Assembly (NCBI RefSeq): GCF_964656455.1
Contig: NC_135722.1
Coordinates: 111,358,234-111,422,233, forward strand
DNA: 64,000 bases
Direction of reading: 5' to 3'
DNA from: Halichoerus grypus
Lineage: Eukaryota > Chordata > Mammalia > Carnivora > Phocidae
The position numbers and the translations under genes were made by a program. The stretch's first letter is position 1. The number at the start of each line of letters is the position of its first letter. The notes beneath the pieces were generated by a model. It was not told where the DNA came from. It searched no databases and was given only the letters and a program-made list of their open reading frames with translations. This document shows positions 3,169 through 64,000 of this stretch, piece by piece.

Positions 3169-3233
<65 letters not shown>

Positions 3234-12835: not shown

Positions 12836-14214
12836 CCTAAATGTGAGACAGGAATCCATTAAAATCCTTGAGGAGAACAGAGGCAGCAACCTCTTCGACC
12901 TCAGCCGCAGCAACTTCTTGCTAGAAACATCGCCAAAGGCAAGGGAAACAAAAGCGAAAATGAACTATTGGGACTTCATCAAGATAAAAAGCTTTGCACA
13001 GCAAAGGAAACAGTCAACAAAACCAAAAAACAACTGACAGAATGGGAGAAGATATTTGCAAATGACATAGCAGATAAAGGGCTAGTATCCAAAATCTATA
13101 AAGAACTTATGAAACTCAACACCCAAAGAACAAATGATCCAATCAAGAAATGGGCAGAAGACATGAACAGACATTTTTCCAAGAAGACATCCAAATGGCC
13201 AACAGACACATGAAAAAGTGCTCAACATCGCTCGGCATCAGGGAAATCCCAATCAAAACCTCAATAAGATACCACCTCACACCAGTCAGAATGGCTAAAA
13301 TTAACAAGTCAGGAAATGACAGATGTTGGCGAGGATGCGGAGAAAGGGGAACCCTCCTACACTGTTGGTGGGAATGCAAGCTGGTGCAACAGTATGGAGG
13401 TGCCTCAAAAAGTTGAAAATAGAGCTACCATACGATCCAGCAATTGCACTACTGAGTATTTACCCGAAAGATACAAATGTAGGGATCCGAAGGGGTATGT
13501 GCACCCCAATGTTTATAGCAACAATGTCCACAATAGCCAAACTATGGAAAGAGCCAAGATATCCATCAGTAGATAAATGGATAAAGAAGATGTGGTATGT
13601 TTATGCAACGGAATATTATACAGCCATAGAAAAAAACAAAACGAAATCTTGCCATTTCCAACGATGTGGATGGAACTAGAGGATATTATGCTAAGCGAAA
13701 GAAGTCAATCAGAGAAAGACATGTATCATATGATCTCACTGGTATGAGGAATTCTTAATCTCAGGAAACAAACTGAGGGTTGCTGGAGTGGGGGGTGGGG
13801 TGGGAGGGATGGGGTGGCTGGTGATAGACATTGGGGAGGGTATGTGCTATGGTGAGCACTGTGAATTGTGCAAGACTGTTGAATCACAGACCTGTACCCC
13901 TGAAACAAATAATACAGTATATGGTAAAAAAAAAAAAAAGAAGAAGATAGTAGGAAGGGAAAAATGAAGGGGGGGGAAATCGGAGGGGGAGACGAACCAT
14001 GAGAGATGACGGACTCTGAGAAACAAACTGAGGGTTCTAGAGGGGAGGGGGGTGGGGGGATGGGTTAGTCCGGTGATGAGTATTAAGGAGGGCACGTTCT
14101 GCATGGAGCACTGGGTGTTATACTCAAACAGTGAATCATGGAACACTACATCAAAAACTAATGATGTAATGGATGGTGATTAACATAACATAATAAAATA
14201 AAATTAAAAAAAAA
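12836..14214 (+). pseudogene. 5'-truncated caniform L1: ORF2 end plus 3' UTR
   Basis: Begins inside ORF2 at CCTAAATGTGAGACAGGAAT and runs to the A-rich tail at about 14205. ORF2 is split over frames at 12843-13037, 12968-13213, 13150-13416 and 13323-13679, so at least three frameshifts have occurred. [24 protein letters not shown] coding is visible near 13330-13400. The 3' UTR has two similar modules, each with AACAAACTGAGGGTT, a G-rich run and a GTTGAATCAC/GTGAATCATG part, separated by an internal A-rich stretch at 13925. Similarity to the copies at 18.1 and 20.4 kb suggests a fairly recent subfamily. Confidence 0.93.
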
Positions 14215-20370: not shown

Positions 20371-21030
20371 TTTTTTTTTTAATTTTTTATTGTTATGTTA
20401 ATCACCATACAGTACATCATTAGTTTTAGATGTAGTGTTCCATGATTCATTGTTTGCATATAACACCCAGTGCTCCATGCAGAACGTGCCCTCCTCAATA
20501 CCCATCACCAGGCTAACCCATCCTCCCACCCCCCTCCCCTCTAGAACCCTCAGTTTGTTTTTCAGAGTCCATCGTCTCTCATGATTCGTCTCCCCCTCCG
20601 ATTTCCCCCCCTTCATTCTTCCCCTCCTGCTATCTTCTTCTTCTTTTTTTTTTTCTTAACATATATTGCATTATTTGTTTCCGAGGTACAGATCTGAGAT
20701 TCAACAGTCTTGCACAATTCACAGTGCTCACCATAACACATACCCTCCTCAGTGTCTATCACCCAGTCACCCCATCCCTCCCACCCCCCCACTCCAGCAA
20801 CCCTCAGTTTGTTTCCTGAGATTAAGAATTCCTCGTATCAGTGAGGTCGTATGATACATGTCTTTCTCTGTTTGACTTATTTCGCTCAGCATAATACCCT
20901 CCAGTTCCATCCACATCGTTGCAAATGGCAAGATCTCATTCCTTTTGATGGCTGCATAATATTCCATTGTATATATATACCACATCTTCTTTATCCATTC
21001 ATCTGTCGATGGACATCTTGGCTCTTTCCA
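20371..21030 (-). mobile_element. L1 3' end, reverse, 660 bp
   Basis: CAGCAGCAGTCCATCTT at 20354-20370 and CAGCAGCAGTTCATCTT at 21031-21047 are target duplications with one difference. Between them is a reversed caniform L1 3' UTR with both G-rich modules (here C-rich: CCCACCCCCCTCCCCTCTAG and CCCACCCCCCCACTCCAGCA). It runs to CATCTTGGCTCTTTCCA, inside the ORF2 end. Minus-strand frames such as 72 codons at 20767-20985 are remnants. It splits the RNase H part of the retroviral relic. Confidence 0.95.
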
Positions 21031-22260: not shown

Positions 22261-22465
22261 GGGGCGCCTGGGTGGCTCAGTTGGTTAAGCAACTGCCTTC
22301 GGCTCAGGTCATGATCCTGGAGTCCCTGGATCGAGTCCCGCATCGGGCTCCCTGCTCGGCAGGGAGTCTGCTTCTCCCTCTGACCCTCCCCCCTCTCATG
22401 TGCTCTCTCTCTCTCATTCTCTCTCTTTCAAATAAATAAGTAAAATCTTTAAAAAAAAAAAAAAA
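22261..22465 (+). mobile_element. Can-SINE, perfect 16-bp TSD
   Basis: AAGAAAAAACCTGCTG at 22245-22260 and 22466-22481 flanks a full SINE with a clean head (GGGGCGCCTGGGTGGCTCAG), B-box-like GGATCGAGTCCC and an uninterrupted A-tail of about 16. The features suggest a relatively young insertion. Confidence 0.96.
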
Positions 22466-26573: not shown

Positions 26574-26590
26574 CAATAAAAATGTATTTT

Positions 26591-26785
26591 TTTTAAAAGA
26601 TTATTTATTTATTTATTTGAGAGAGAGAGAATGAGAGAGAGCAAGCACATGAGAGGGGGGAGGGTCAGAGGGAGAAGCAGACTCCCTGCCGAGCAGGGAG
26701 CCCGATGCGGGACTCGATCCCGGGACTCCAGGATCATGACCTGAGCCGAAGGCAGTCGCTTAACCAACTGAGCCACCCAGGCGCC
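26591..26785 (-). mobile_element. Can-SINE, reverse, perfect 17-bp TSD
   Basis: CAATAAAAATGTATTTT at 26574-26590 and 26786-26802. The reverse SINE has a clean head complement (GAGCCACCCAGGCGCC), CTCGATCCCGGGACTCC and a T-rich tail complement. Well preserved. Confidence 0.96.
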
Positions 26786-26802
26786 CAATAAAAATGTATT
26801 TT

Positions 26803-61672: not shown

Positions 61673-61851
61673 GGGGCGCCTGGGGGGCTCAGTCGGTGAA
61701 GCGTCTGCCTTCAGCTCAGGTCATGATCCCAGGGTCCTGGGATCAAGCCCCTCGTCTCCCTGCTCAGCTGGGAGCCTGCTTCTCCCTCTGCCCCTCCCCC
61801 TGCTCGTGCGCACAAGCACTCTCTCTCTCAAATAAATAAAATCTTAAAAAA
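61673..61851 (+). mobile_element. Can-SINE, shortened
   Basis: Head GGGGCGCCTGGGGGGCTCAG. After GGGATCAAGCCCC it jumps to TCGTCTCCCTGCTCAGCTGG, so a few bases are missing. Ends AATAAATAAAATC. Flanks carry ATATCAGAACA on both sides. Confidence 0.93.
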
Positions 61852-61877
61852 TATATCAGAACAAAACTGACATTATA

Positions 61878-62129
61878 GGGGCGCCTGGGTGGCTCAGTTG
61901 TTAAGCGTCTGCCTTAGGATCAGGTCATGATCCCAGGGTCCTGGGATCGAGCCCCACATCGGGCTCCCAGCTCGGCGGGAAGCCTGCTTCTCCCTCTCTA
62001 AGGCAACCTGTCTTCGCTGAGGGTGATGGTGGTTGGCGTTGTTCTAACCCGGAGCTTGTGTTCCCTCTCTGGCTGTGTCTCTCTTTGTCAAATAAATAAA
62101 TAAAAATAAAATCTTTAAAAAAACAAAAA
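61878..62129 (+). mobile_element. Can-SINE carrying a 60-bp inverted foreign segment
   Basis: A normal head (GGGGCGCCTGGGTGGCTCAG), B-box-like GGGATCGAGCCCC and GGGCTCCCAGCTCGGCGGGA precede CTTCTCCCTCTC. Where CCACTCCCCCT is expected, 61997-62056 holds unrelated sequence. The normal text then resumes with GCTTGTGTTCCCTCTCTGGC to an AATAAATAAATAAAAATAA tail. AAAACTGACATTAT upstream and AAAACTGACATCAT downstream are target duplications with one difference. The foreign part is the exact reverse complement of 62948-63007. Confidence 0.96.
61997..62056 (-). repeat. 60-bp inverted copy of 62948-63007
   Basis: Base by base, this block (starting TCTAAGGCAACCTG, ending CTAACCCGGAGCT) is the reverse complement of 62948-63007, with no mismatch over 60 bases. 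The next base on each side differs. It replaces about 11 bases of the SINE. Junctions share one to three bases with the normal SINE text, as in microhomology-mediated template switching. Confidence 0.97.
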
Positions 62130-62144
62130 CAAAAACTGACATCA

Positions 62145-62764
62145 TTTTCTCCCTGTAGTGATGCATATATCCTTCAAGACACTCAAAATCAACTAAGTAG
62201 CATTTTTGCCAAAAATATTTAACTTGCATCTAAAACGAGGAAGCCATCACAGAAATCCAGAGGGAGATACATTTTACAAGACAAATCACTTGAACTCTTC
62301 AGAAATGCCAATGTCATGAAGAATTTAGAAAGTGTGTTTGTGGGCGGAGGGACGGTCCCATCCAGATTAAAGGAGATTAAGGGGGCCAGACAACCAAACG
62401 TAATGCTCAGTCCATTGACTGAATCCGTAGGGAAAATAGCTATAAAGAGCCCTTTATCTAAGTTTCCAAGGTTTCCAATAGTCTGAAATTTAGGAAAGTA
62501 AAGAAACTAAAGCAAAAGCACGGCGAGGACCCTAGGTAAGGCCCACACCTGCATTCGTTACAGAAAAGCACTCATCGCTCGTGACCAATCCACAGGCAGA
62601 AATCAGTGCACTGCAAAAGTTGTCTGATTTGTAGTAAATGTGCTTTGTTATAAGAACCACCTTTCTCAAAATTCTCCTCCTACAGTCCCCTTCTTCTGAT
62701 TTTGCTCCTCTTACTGCGAAGTGCTCTACACTTGTAAATGTTCACGACATCTTGAACACAGGTG
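62145..62764. other. Unassigned sequence, possibly old repeat
   Basis: AAGGAGATTAAGGGGGCCAG and CAACCAAACGTAATGCTCAG at about 62365-62410 recall a common old mammalian repeat I cannot name with confidence. No gene. Confidence 0.35.
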
Positions 62765-62900
62765 TTTGCCCTCATGGACGTCAGGCACTGTGCCACATGC
62801 TGAGACACAAAGACAAAAATATAACGAAAAAGTGTTCTGTGCCCCAGAGGAATTTACAGGCTATGAAGGAAGAGAACAGAAAACAGATTACAATGAGCTT
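62765..62900 (-). mobile_element. L2 3' end, reverse
   Basis: GTCAGGCACTGTGCCACATG, CTGAGACACAAAGACAAAAA, CAGAGGAATTTACAGGCTAT and GAGAACAGAAAACAGATTAC match the reversed L2 3' end. The 122-codon frame at 62638-63006 is its read-through. Confidence 0.75.
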
Positions 62901-62947
62901 AGGAACCTTAATGCAAATGGATTCATTTACACGGATTCGTTCTTGTG

Positions 62948-63007
62948 AGCTCCGGGTTAGAACAACGCCAACCACCATCACCCTCAGCGAAGACAGGTTG
63001 CCTTAGA
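62948..63007 (+). repeat. Source arm of the inverted duplication
   Basis: AGCTCCGGGTTAGAACAACG through GACAGGTTGCCTTAGA. This copy is probably the source: it continues smoothly from its left flank and is not inside another element, while the other copy interrupts a SINE. Its right end touches the target duplication of the next SINE. Confidence 0.95.
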
Positions 63008-63016
63008 TTCCTTCTT

Positions 63017-63144
63017 CTTCTTTTTTTTTTTTTTAAAGATTTTATTTTTACGTAATCTCTACACACCCAGCGTGGGGCTCGAACCTACGACCCCGAGATC
63101 AAAATCTCACGCCCCACCACCTGAGCCAGCCAGGTGCCCCTAGC
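63017..63144 (-). mobile_element. Can-SINE, reverse, short type
   Basis: T-run and AAAGATTTTATTTTTACGTA, then CACCCAGCGTGGGGCTCGAA, CTACGACCCCGAGATCAAAA and GAGCCAGCCAGGTGCCCC. This is the shorter SINEC form with a GGGGCTCGAACC B-box complement. TTAGATTCCTTCTT (63003-63016) and TTGGATTCCTTCTT (63145-63158) flank it. Confidence 0.93.
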
Positions 63145-63158
63145 TTGGATTCCTTCTT

Positions 63159-63699
63159 AGAACCAAGCCACAGTACAGGAGAGACAGTGGCAAGACCACT
63201 TAAAACTCAGGCTTCGGGAAAACCCAAGACAAGAATCTGGCTGCCAGTCTGCCTGCCTCTGAGGGAGATGGCCCTGGACTGAGAAGGGCGCACACAGGCT
63301 GGGGTGTAGGGCAGAGGCTGCTGGAAGAACGCAGGGAGACGCTCTGCGCTCTGGCTTGTGTGTCCTGACTCGGAGACCTCGATTCGTCCCAGAGAAACAC
63401 CTGCCCCGACTTTCTAGGGGACGGGACCCCTCTCTCCCTCTCTCCTCACACCGACTTGTAATTTTATAGTTAATTATGAAGTACTTCAAGCATACAAAAC
63501 AGTAAAGAGAAGGTATAACAGAAATTCATGGGCCGCCACCTAGATTTTATAAAGCATCACCTCTCTTTTTTCATTTAATAAAATGAAATAGAAGTAGAAG
63601 CCTTCTTATTCCCAGTGGTTACTCTCTCCATTCCCAGAGGCAACCCTGAGGTGTGTATGTATTTTTCCCTTCCAAGTTTTTACTTTTGGGTGTTATTTC
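63159..63699. other. Unique plus possible L1M trace
   Basis: 63160-63440 is GC-richer with a 110-codon minus frame (63157-63489) and a second minus frame over it, neither with a domain. 63460-63660 (TACTTCAAGCATACAAAACA, CCCAGAGGCAACCCTGAGG) recalls a reversed old L1M 3' part. Confidence 0.4.
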
Positions 63700-63807
63700 A
63701 TTTTATTTTTTTAAAGATTTTTTTATTTGAGAGAGAGAGAGCACGCGCAGGGGGAGGAGCAGAGGGAGAGAGACCCAGGCAGACTCGGCTCGATCTCATG
63801 ACCCTGG
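63700..63807 (-). mobile_element. Can-SINE fragment, head missing
   Basis: ATTTTATTTTTTTAAAGATT, GAGAGAGAGAGAGCACGCGC and a short GACTCGGCTCGATCTCATGA part. The head complement (GAGCCACCCAGG) is absent and part of the middle is deleted. Confidence 0.85.
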
Positions 63808-63812
63808 TTCTC

Positions 63813-63897
63813 TTGAAGAATAAACAAGTAAAAATGGCTGATAAAAATTTGAAGCTCATTTGAAGAATAAGCAAATAAGTATAGCTAATAAAATTTT
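63813..63897 (+). repeat. Diverged 47-bp tandem duplication
   Basis: TTGAAGAATAAACAAGTAAA at 63813 and TTGAAGAATAAGCAAATAAG at 63860 start two parallel copies, both containing a TGGCTGATAAAA / TAGCTAATAAAA part. About one base in six differs. Confidence 0.85.
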
Positions 63898-64000
63898 GTA
63901 AACGTATTTAAATGTGGGAGTATTTGATACATTAGATAGTTAACATAAGGATTTAGAAATGAATGGGACACTGAAGTAACCTACATAAGTATTCCCGTGT
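63898..64000. other. AT-rich window edge
   Basis: Nothing is recognised. Confidence 0.5.

What the first reader, a model, noticed from the sequence alone, without database searches (positions are those of the whole stretch)
61997..62056. Exact 60-bp inverted templated insertion inside a SINE
The SINE at 61878-62129 has lost about 11 bases of its CT-rich part and gained 60 bases that are the exact reverse complement of 62948-63007, some 0.9 kb away. Short shared bases at both junctions fit template switching or polymerase-theta-type repair. Zero mismatches between the copies imply a recent event, a recent conversion, or an assembly error.
Basis: seen in the sequence. Interest (0 to 1): 0.8.

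Follow-up and report, generated by a model that had tools for sequence, protein, structure and literature searches.

The report
Inverted DNA copy inside a SINE
A carnivore-type genome carries a small copying error in which a 60-base piece of nearby DNA was pasted backwards into a mobile element; the kind of error is known, but the copying machinery jumped unusually far, and a neighbouring mobile element in mirror orientation may have guided it.

Summary
Window 61997-62056 is the exact reverse complement of 62948-63007. A search of the 2.40-Gb genome with that 60-mer returned only these two places. It sits in the TC-rich part of a Can-type SINE (61878-62129). Of the 39 other SINE copies scored, none holds any 15-mer of the insert, and 36 have exactly 11 bp at that point. 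So 11 bp were replaced by 60 bp, with 2-bp (TC) and 3-bp (GCT) junction overlaps. The SINE copy is the derived one. Zero differences in 60, against 3.8% for the host SINE, make the event younger than the SINE (P about 0.01).

Best reading: a germline template switch during replication or break repair, copied accurately, with return to the original template. The donor ends 10 bases from an oppositely oriented SINE. Pre-event DNA is predicted to fold into a SINE-SINE hairpin that leaves both breakpoints in an unpaired bulge and the donor at the loop edge. Guidance by that hairpin is inferred, not shown.

A known kind of mutation, with a jump longer than the great-ape survey read here searched. 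No orthologue or read data were available.

The parts
61878..62129 (+). Host Can-type SINE (tRNA-like head, TC motif, AATAAA repeats, TCTTT, A-tail), interrupted
   Evidence: Alignment with eight other window copies and 39 genomic copies; anatomy as described for Can SINEs in PMC9599045 (passages)
61863..61876 (+). Left target-site duplication of the host SINE
   Evidence: 13 of 14 identical to 62132-62145
62132..62145 (+). Right target-site duplication of the host SINE
   Evidence: 13 of 14 identical to 61863-61876
61997..62056 (+). The templated insert: exact reverse complement of 62948-63007, replacing 11 bp of the TC motif
61997..61998 (+). 5' junction overlap, TC, 2 bp
62054..62056 (+). 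3' junction overlap, GCT, 3 bp
62948..63007 (-). Donor segment, read on the minus strand; no other genomic match apart from the insert
   Evidence: its last six bases lie inside the left target-site duplication of SINE2
63017..63140 (-). SINE2, an oppositely oriented tRNA-derived SINE without the TC motif (left edge set by the end of its target-site duplication; A-tail included)
   Evidence: Rfam tRNA match 63064-63135 minus strand, 33.1 bits against gathering 29; ARAGORN 63063-63136 minus strand, isotype not called; predicted pairing with the host SINE
63002..63016 (+). Left target-site duplication of SINE2
   Evidence: 14 of 15 identical to 63144-63158
63144..63158 (+). Right target-site duplication of SINE2
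   Evidence: 14 of 15 identical to 63002-63016

Best explanation
A germline template-switch mutation of the replication or break-induced-replication type. A DNA 3' end stalled in the TC motif of the host SINE, moved with two to three bases of microhomology onto the opposite strand about 0.95 kb away, copied 60 bases accurately in reverse, then returned to its own template 11 bases further on. Shown: insert, donor, that the insert is the derived copy, breakpoints, the 11-bp loss (from paralogous copies), no further genomic match. Inferred: the stall, the polymerase and the replication context. Also inferred, at about 0.45: the inverted SINE2 guided the jump, because host SINE and SINE2 can pair into a hairpin in which both breakpoints lie in an unpaired bulge and the donor lies just inside the loop. 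In the four-point notation the order is 1-4-3-2 if copying ran left to right (inter-strand); run right to left, an intra-strand fold-back is also possible.
For: Exact inverted identity over 60 nt; two genomic matches only; spacer 62150-62947 has one full-length match. Pre-event state from all 39 other copies scored: 0 of 39 hold any 15-mer of the insert, 36 of 39 have exactly 11 bp there. Junction overlaps 2 and 3 bp; in 200,000 random placements both reached this level in 0.9% and their sum reached 5 in 3.1%. Zero errors in 60 favour an accurate polymerase (inference). The SINE2 duplication includes donor bases 63002-63007, so that donor edge was in place when SINE2 landed. Predicted pre-event fold: 83 pairs between host and SINE2 (85 with their flanks), against 0-13 in 30 controls with SINE2 replaced; five sampled positions have pair probabilities 0.88-1.0; the 67 pre-event bases between paired positions 61957 and 62069, which hold both breakpoints, have no partner in SINE2. 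Host-SINE2 duplex -60.0 against a best of -40.7 in 200 random window pairs. Osia et al. report that 80% of the tumour junctions they analysed on chromosome 1 had 2-12 bp of microhomology (PMC8421209, passages).
Against: Overlaps of 2 and 3 bp are only modestly beyond chance. The donor is about 0.95 kb away, beyond the tens to hundreds of bases in which such events are usually sought (PMC7954356). The hairpin argument is post hoc: 52 of 6,628 donor positions examined (0.8%) lie within 12 nt of an inverted SINE, but the rule was set after seeing the case. The fold controls replaced SINE2 with random segments; other SINE pairs were not tried. In yeast, inverted repeats 1 kb apart mostly act by inter-molecular annealing and not by fold-back (PMC6103520, abstract). 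No orthologue or second individual was available.
Confidence: 0.65

Rival explanations
1. Polymerase-theta-mediated end joining: a double-strand break in the TC motif, with the end copied from a distant strand before joining.
For: Small deletion plus a templated insert plus 2-3 bp junction overlaps. Reverse-complement (snap-back) inserts exist as a minor class of such scars, and about 3% of inserts map to distant sites (PMC5068794, passages).
Against: Published inserts average about 10 bp, about 85% prime within 10 bp of the break, and the error rate is about 1 in 30 bases (same passages, C. elegans). At that rate an error-free 60-mer would occur about 13% of the time (my arithmetic), so this alone does not exclude it.
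Confidence: 0.13
2. Break repair with end capture: a copied or displaced fragment of the neighbouring strand was joined into a break in the SINE (class 2 templated sequence insertion, or the yeast fold-back plus end-joining route).
For: In yeast, fold-back inverted insertions join the other end with 0-5 bp overlap, median 2, and range up to about 150 bp (PMC11724301, passages). Class 2 insertions are DNA patches at breaks (PMC5110952, part 1 of 4 of the text).
Against: Recovered human insertions were 73-414 bp and not derived from nearby sequence. The yeast local events are mostly under 14 bp and primed beside the break. Hard to separate from the best explanation by sequence alone.
Confidence: 0.13
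3. Assembly or library artefact (chimeric read or mis-filled gap).
For: No reads could be examined, and the copies are perfectly identical.
Against: The sequence returns to the same SINE 11 bp on, with both flanks and the target-site duplication present. The locus is placed once, in a 111.7-Mb contig of an assembly with 170 contigs. A simple fold-back chimera gives one junction, not two (reasoning).
Confidence: 0.06
4. Template jump of reverse transcriptase while the host SINE was being inserted, so that the chimera is as old as the SINE.
For: The insert has the sense of a read-through transcript from SINE2 on the minus strand.
Against: The host SINE differs at 7 of 184 sites from its consensus and its duplication at 1 of 14, but the insert at 0 of 60 (probability about 0.0095). 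The donor lies 0.9 kb from the landing site, which an RNA acting in trans does not explain.
Confidence: 0.02
5. An old inverted duplication kept identical by gene conversion.
For: Inverted arms 0.9 kb apart could convert.
Against: Identity covers the whole inserted stretch and stops at the junctions; the arms are only 60 bp; no other copy was found.
Confidence: 0.01

Closest known systems
Short-range template-switch mutations, four-point model (Walker et al. 2021, PMC7954356; passages)
   Same: Reverse-complement fragment, return to the original template, net change in length, order 1-4-3-2, one of the two majority patterns. Fragments up to 128 nt reported (median 12).
   Different: Donor about 0.95 kb away; that survey added only 100 nt either side as search space for the fragment. 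Here the recipient is a SINE and an inverted SINE stands at the donor.
MMBIR-linked templated insertions (Osia et al. 2021, PMC8421209; passages)
   Same: Insert copied from elsewhere with a few bases of microhomology at the junctions.
   Different: The yeast events behind that model were copied from within 100 bp. Here a single simple insert from about 0.95 kb.
Microinversions between human and chimpanzee (PMC8755829; passages)
   Same: Exactly copied inverted stretch, flanking inverted repeats, template switching or MMBIR proposed.
   Different: Those are 17-33 nt inversions in place; here the donor stays and a second, inverted copy appears elsewhere.
Polymerase-theta templated insertions (PMC5068794; passages)
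   Same: Deletion plus templated insert.
   Different: Here longer, error-free and from farther away.
Fold-back inverted insertions in yeast (PMC11724301; passages)
   Same: Inverted copy made after fold-back, small overlap at the capture junction, lengths up to about 150 bp.
   Different: Most are under 14 bp and copied from beside the break.
Inverted-repeat-directed break repair in yeast (PMC6103520; abstract and outline only)
   Same: Inverted repeats about 1 kb apart re-route repair.
   Different: Repeats placed near an induced break, leading to inverted dimers and break-induced replication, not a 60-bp insert.

Membership tests
Template-switch mutation (four-point model) | Inserted fragment is the reverse complement of another segment on the same chromosome | tested here: met
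   60 of 60
Template-switch mutation (four-point model) | Both flanks continue on the original template | tested here: met
   SINE flanks resume after 11 bp
Template-switch mutation (four-point model) | Ancestral state known and lacking the fragment | tested here: inconclusive
   39 of 39 paralogous SINE copies lack it; no orthologue was available
Template-switch mutation (four-point model) | Donor within tens to hundreds of bases (the search range of the survey, not a limit of the mechanism) | tested here: not met
   Switch points 951 and 1009 bases from the insert's start; survey range
MMBIR templated insertion | Microhomology at the junctions | tested here: met
   2 and 3 bp; joint null 0.9%, so weak
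Polymerase-theta end joining | Short, error-prone insert copied beside the break | tested here: not met
   60 bp, no error, about 0.95 kb away; typical, not strictly defining
Polymerase-theta end joining | Dependence on POLQ | not testable with these tools
   Needs genetics
L1-mediated (class 1) templated insertion | TSD and poly(A) around the insert | tested here: not met
   None seen at 61997 or 62056 in the sequence; 11 bp lost instead
Can SINE (host element) | tRNA-like head, TC motif, AATAAA repeats, TCTTT, A-tail, TSD | tested here: met
   compared with PMC9599045 passages. The tRNA head of the host was judged by alignment; Rfam and ARAGORN found a tRNA only in SINE2. The carnivoran assignment rests on that paper and recall

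The most novel reading that the evidence does not exclude
Inverted SINE pairs act as guides for long-reach template switching: the paired heads anchor the nascent strand on the wrong strand, the unpaired TC motif supplies the free 3' end, and sequence just inside the loop is copied backwards into the TC motif. If general, Can SINE TC motifs facing an inverted partner would hold a class of roughly kilobase-range inverted templated inserts that a survey limited to about 100 nt cannot see.
Probability: 0.3. Interest if true: 0.55.

Novelty: new member of a known kind. Interest (0 to 1): 0.32.

Why it matters
Clean template-switch scars with donor, recipient, pre-event state and junctions all resolved are useful test cases. 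This one reaches about 1 kb, outside the search range of the great-ape survey read here, and stands at an inverted SINE pair, so it suggests a testable genome-wide question: do inverted SINE pairs direct such jumps? On its own it is a neutral-looking mutation, in a stretch where I saw no gene but did not look for exons. It splits the TC motif that Can SINEs need for polyadenylation of their transcripts (PMC9599045, passages), so the copy is probably dead by that route (inference).

Tried and rejected
Looking for the insert core or the uninterrupted SINE in other collections gave nothing: viral contigs, genome contigs, plasmids, phages. These are not places where a mammalian locus is expected, so the misses say little.

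A genome-wide count of other interrupted SINEs (51-80 or 20-50 bases in place of the usual 11, and the denominator with 11) was sent but did not complete, so no rate of recurrence can be given.

Repeat-family origin of the insert was rejected: two genomic matches only. Reverse-transcriptase jumping, gene conversion and artefact are treated as rivals. Direct fold-back extension from the paired SINE tails was considered and set aside, because extension from that stem would copy SINE2 outward and not the loop-side donor; anchoring by the SINE heads points the right way (reasoning only).

One genomic copy, L012, reads CTCTCTACTCC at the breakpoint. If the host had that variant before the event, the left overlap would be longer than 2 bp (TCTA); the majority of copies do not support it.

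Age: with an assumed 2.2e-9 substitutions per site per year, zero differences in 2 x 60 gives an upper bound of about 11 Myr, or about 6 Myr if CpG sites are weighted tenfold. The rates are assumptions.

The 39 SINE copies are the closest hits of a similarity search (40 of 3,152 candidates scored, the window's own locus among them), so they are not a random sample, and copies with other inserts would be under-represented. A paper on Can-SINE dynamics (PMC6230240, passages) gave copy numbers and divergence but no sequence with which to name the host subfamily.

Full report
Check of the observation. The expected number of such exact inverted pairs by chance in the window is about 5e-27 with an order-0 model. 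In the window's own genome (2,400,014,138 bases, 170 contigs; the window is C11:111358234-111422233), the 60-mer matches two places, these two, at 100%. The spacer 62150-62947 has one full-length match, itself; the other 15 matches cover short parts at 71-87% identity.

Host element. The recipient is a tRNA-derived SINE at 61878-62129, with a 14-bp target-site duplication (one mismatch), a TC-rich motif, AATAAA repeats, TCTTT and an A-tail. This is the anatomy given for Can SINEs of Carnivora (PMC9599045, passages).

Pre-event state. Four uninterrupted relatives in the window share the subfamily's TC motif. A genome search with 301 bases around the insert gave 72 matching stretches (40 of 3,152 candidates scored, one of them the locus itself). 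Many stop at window position 61998 and resume at 62054. I fetched all 39 other scored places. Of 39, 36 have exactly 11 bp between the two breakpoints, one has 12, one has 17, and one (L012) was not mapped by the script and shows 10 by eye. None of the 39 holds any 15-mer of the insert (one search gave the same for the first 34, 31 of them with 11 bp). So the event removed 11 bp and added 60 bp, of which 2 bp (TC) on the left and 3 bp (GCT) on the right are shared by both templates. In 200,000 random placements, both overlaps reached those lengths in 0.9%, and their sum reached 5 in 3.1%. That is supportive but weak.

Direction. The SINE copy is derived, since its SINE relatives lack it. The donor edge is original, because its last six bases (63002-63007) lie inside the target-site duplication of SINE2, a second SINE on the minus strand at 63017-63140 (duplications 63002-63016 and 63144-63158, 14 of 15 alike; tRNA head found by Rfam, and ARAGORN).

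Age. The host SINE differs from the consensus of the 39 copies at 7 of 184 sites (3.8%). If the insert were as old, the chance of no difference in 2 x 60 sites would be about 0.0095. With an assumed rate of 2.2e-9 per site per year, the upper bound is about 11 Myr, or about 6 Myr with CpG weighting. A young event is the simplest reading. The duplications of the host SINE and of SINE2 each carry one mismatch, which fits both SINEs being older.

Mechanism. An inverted fragment with return to the original template is the outcome described by the four-point template-switch model. Here the order is 1-4-3-2, one of the two majority patterns (PMC7954356, passages). In that survey's gold-standard set the median fragment was 12 nt and the longest 128 nt, and the search added 100 nt either side, so an event with a donor 0.95 kb away would not have been found. 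Polymerase-theta repair is less likely: about 10-bp inserts, about 85% primed within 10 bp of the break, about one error per 30 bases (PMC5068794, passages). Junction overlaps of 2-12 bp made up 80% of those analysed on one chromosome of a tumour for MMBIR-linked insertions (PMC8421209, passages). Yeast fold-back insertions can reach about 150 bp although most are under 14 bp (PMC11724301, passages), so a break-repair route stays open.

The setting. The donor ends 10 bases from SINE2, which lies opposite to the host SINE. Folding the pre-event plus strand with DNA parameters pairs the host with SINE2 (83 pairs; 85 with their flanks; 0 to 13 in 30 controls with SINE2 replaced by other window segments; five sampled positions with pair probabilities 0.88-1.0). 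SINE2 has no TC motif, so 67 pre-event bases of the host, including both breakpoints, have no partner there, and the donor lies just inside the 892-nt loop (innermost pair 62129-63022). The host-SINE2 duplex scores -60.0 kcal/mol, against a best of -40.7 among 200 random window pairs. A nascent strand whose SINE head annealed to SINE2 would have its 3' end pointing towards the donor (reasoning). This is a coherent but post hoc reading: 52 of 6,628 donor positions examined (0.8%) would lie as close to an inverted SINE, and many inverted SINE pairs fold alike. Yeast work shows that inverted repeats can re-route break repair, those 1 kb apart mostly by inter-molecular annealing (PMC6103520, abstract).

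Limits. No orthologues, reads or second individual could be examined. A genome-wide count of similarly interrupted SINEs was sent repeatedly and not answered (listed under Tried and rejected), so recurrence is unknown. None of the six paper searches was aimed at this locus, so I make no claim that it is or is not in print.

Verdict. A real, well-resolved and probably young template-switch scar, a new member of a known kind. Its reach and its place at an inverted SINE pair are the parts worth following.

Noticed in passing
1680-2260: A G+C-rich minisatellite with a unit of about 22 bases by eye (repeat lists); three plus-strand frames stay open through it.
   Followed up: no
3170-3229: A (TA)n run that is its own reverse complement over 60 bases.
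   Followed up: no
22261-22463 and 26589-26787: Two similar SINEs in opposite orientation sharing an exact 77-bp inverted stretch, a further inverted SINE pair about 4 kb apart.
   Followed up: no
63813-63851 and 63860-63898: A direct duplication of 39 nt at 82% identity, start to start 47 bases, beside a third, partial inverted SINE at about 63676-63807.
   Followed up: no
61673-61878: Two same-direction SINEs close together; the right flank of the first runs into the target-site duplication of the second.
   Followed up: partly
13746-14122 and 20459-20834: Four exact inverted matches of 36-50 bases between two stretches about 6.5-7 kb apart, apparently one dispersed repeat in opposite orientations.
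   Followed up: no
window as a whole: The window ends 315 kb before the end of contig C11, which is 111,737,233 bases long.
   Followed up: no
L012: One genomic SINE copy reads CTCTCTACTCC at the point where the host was interrupted, a variant that would share four bases with the donor.
   Followed up: partly
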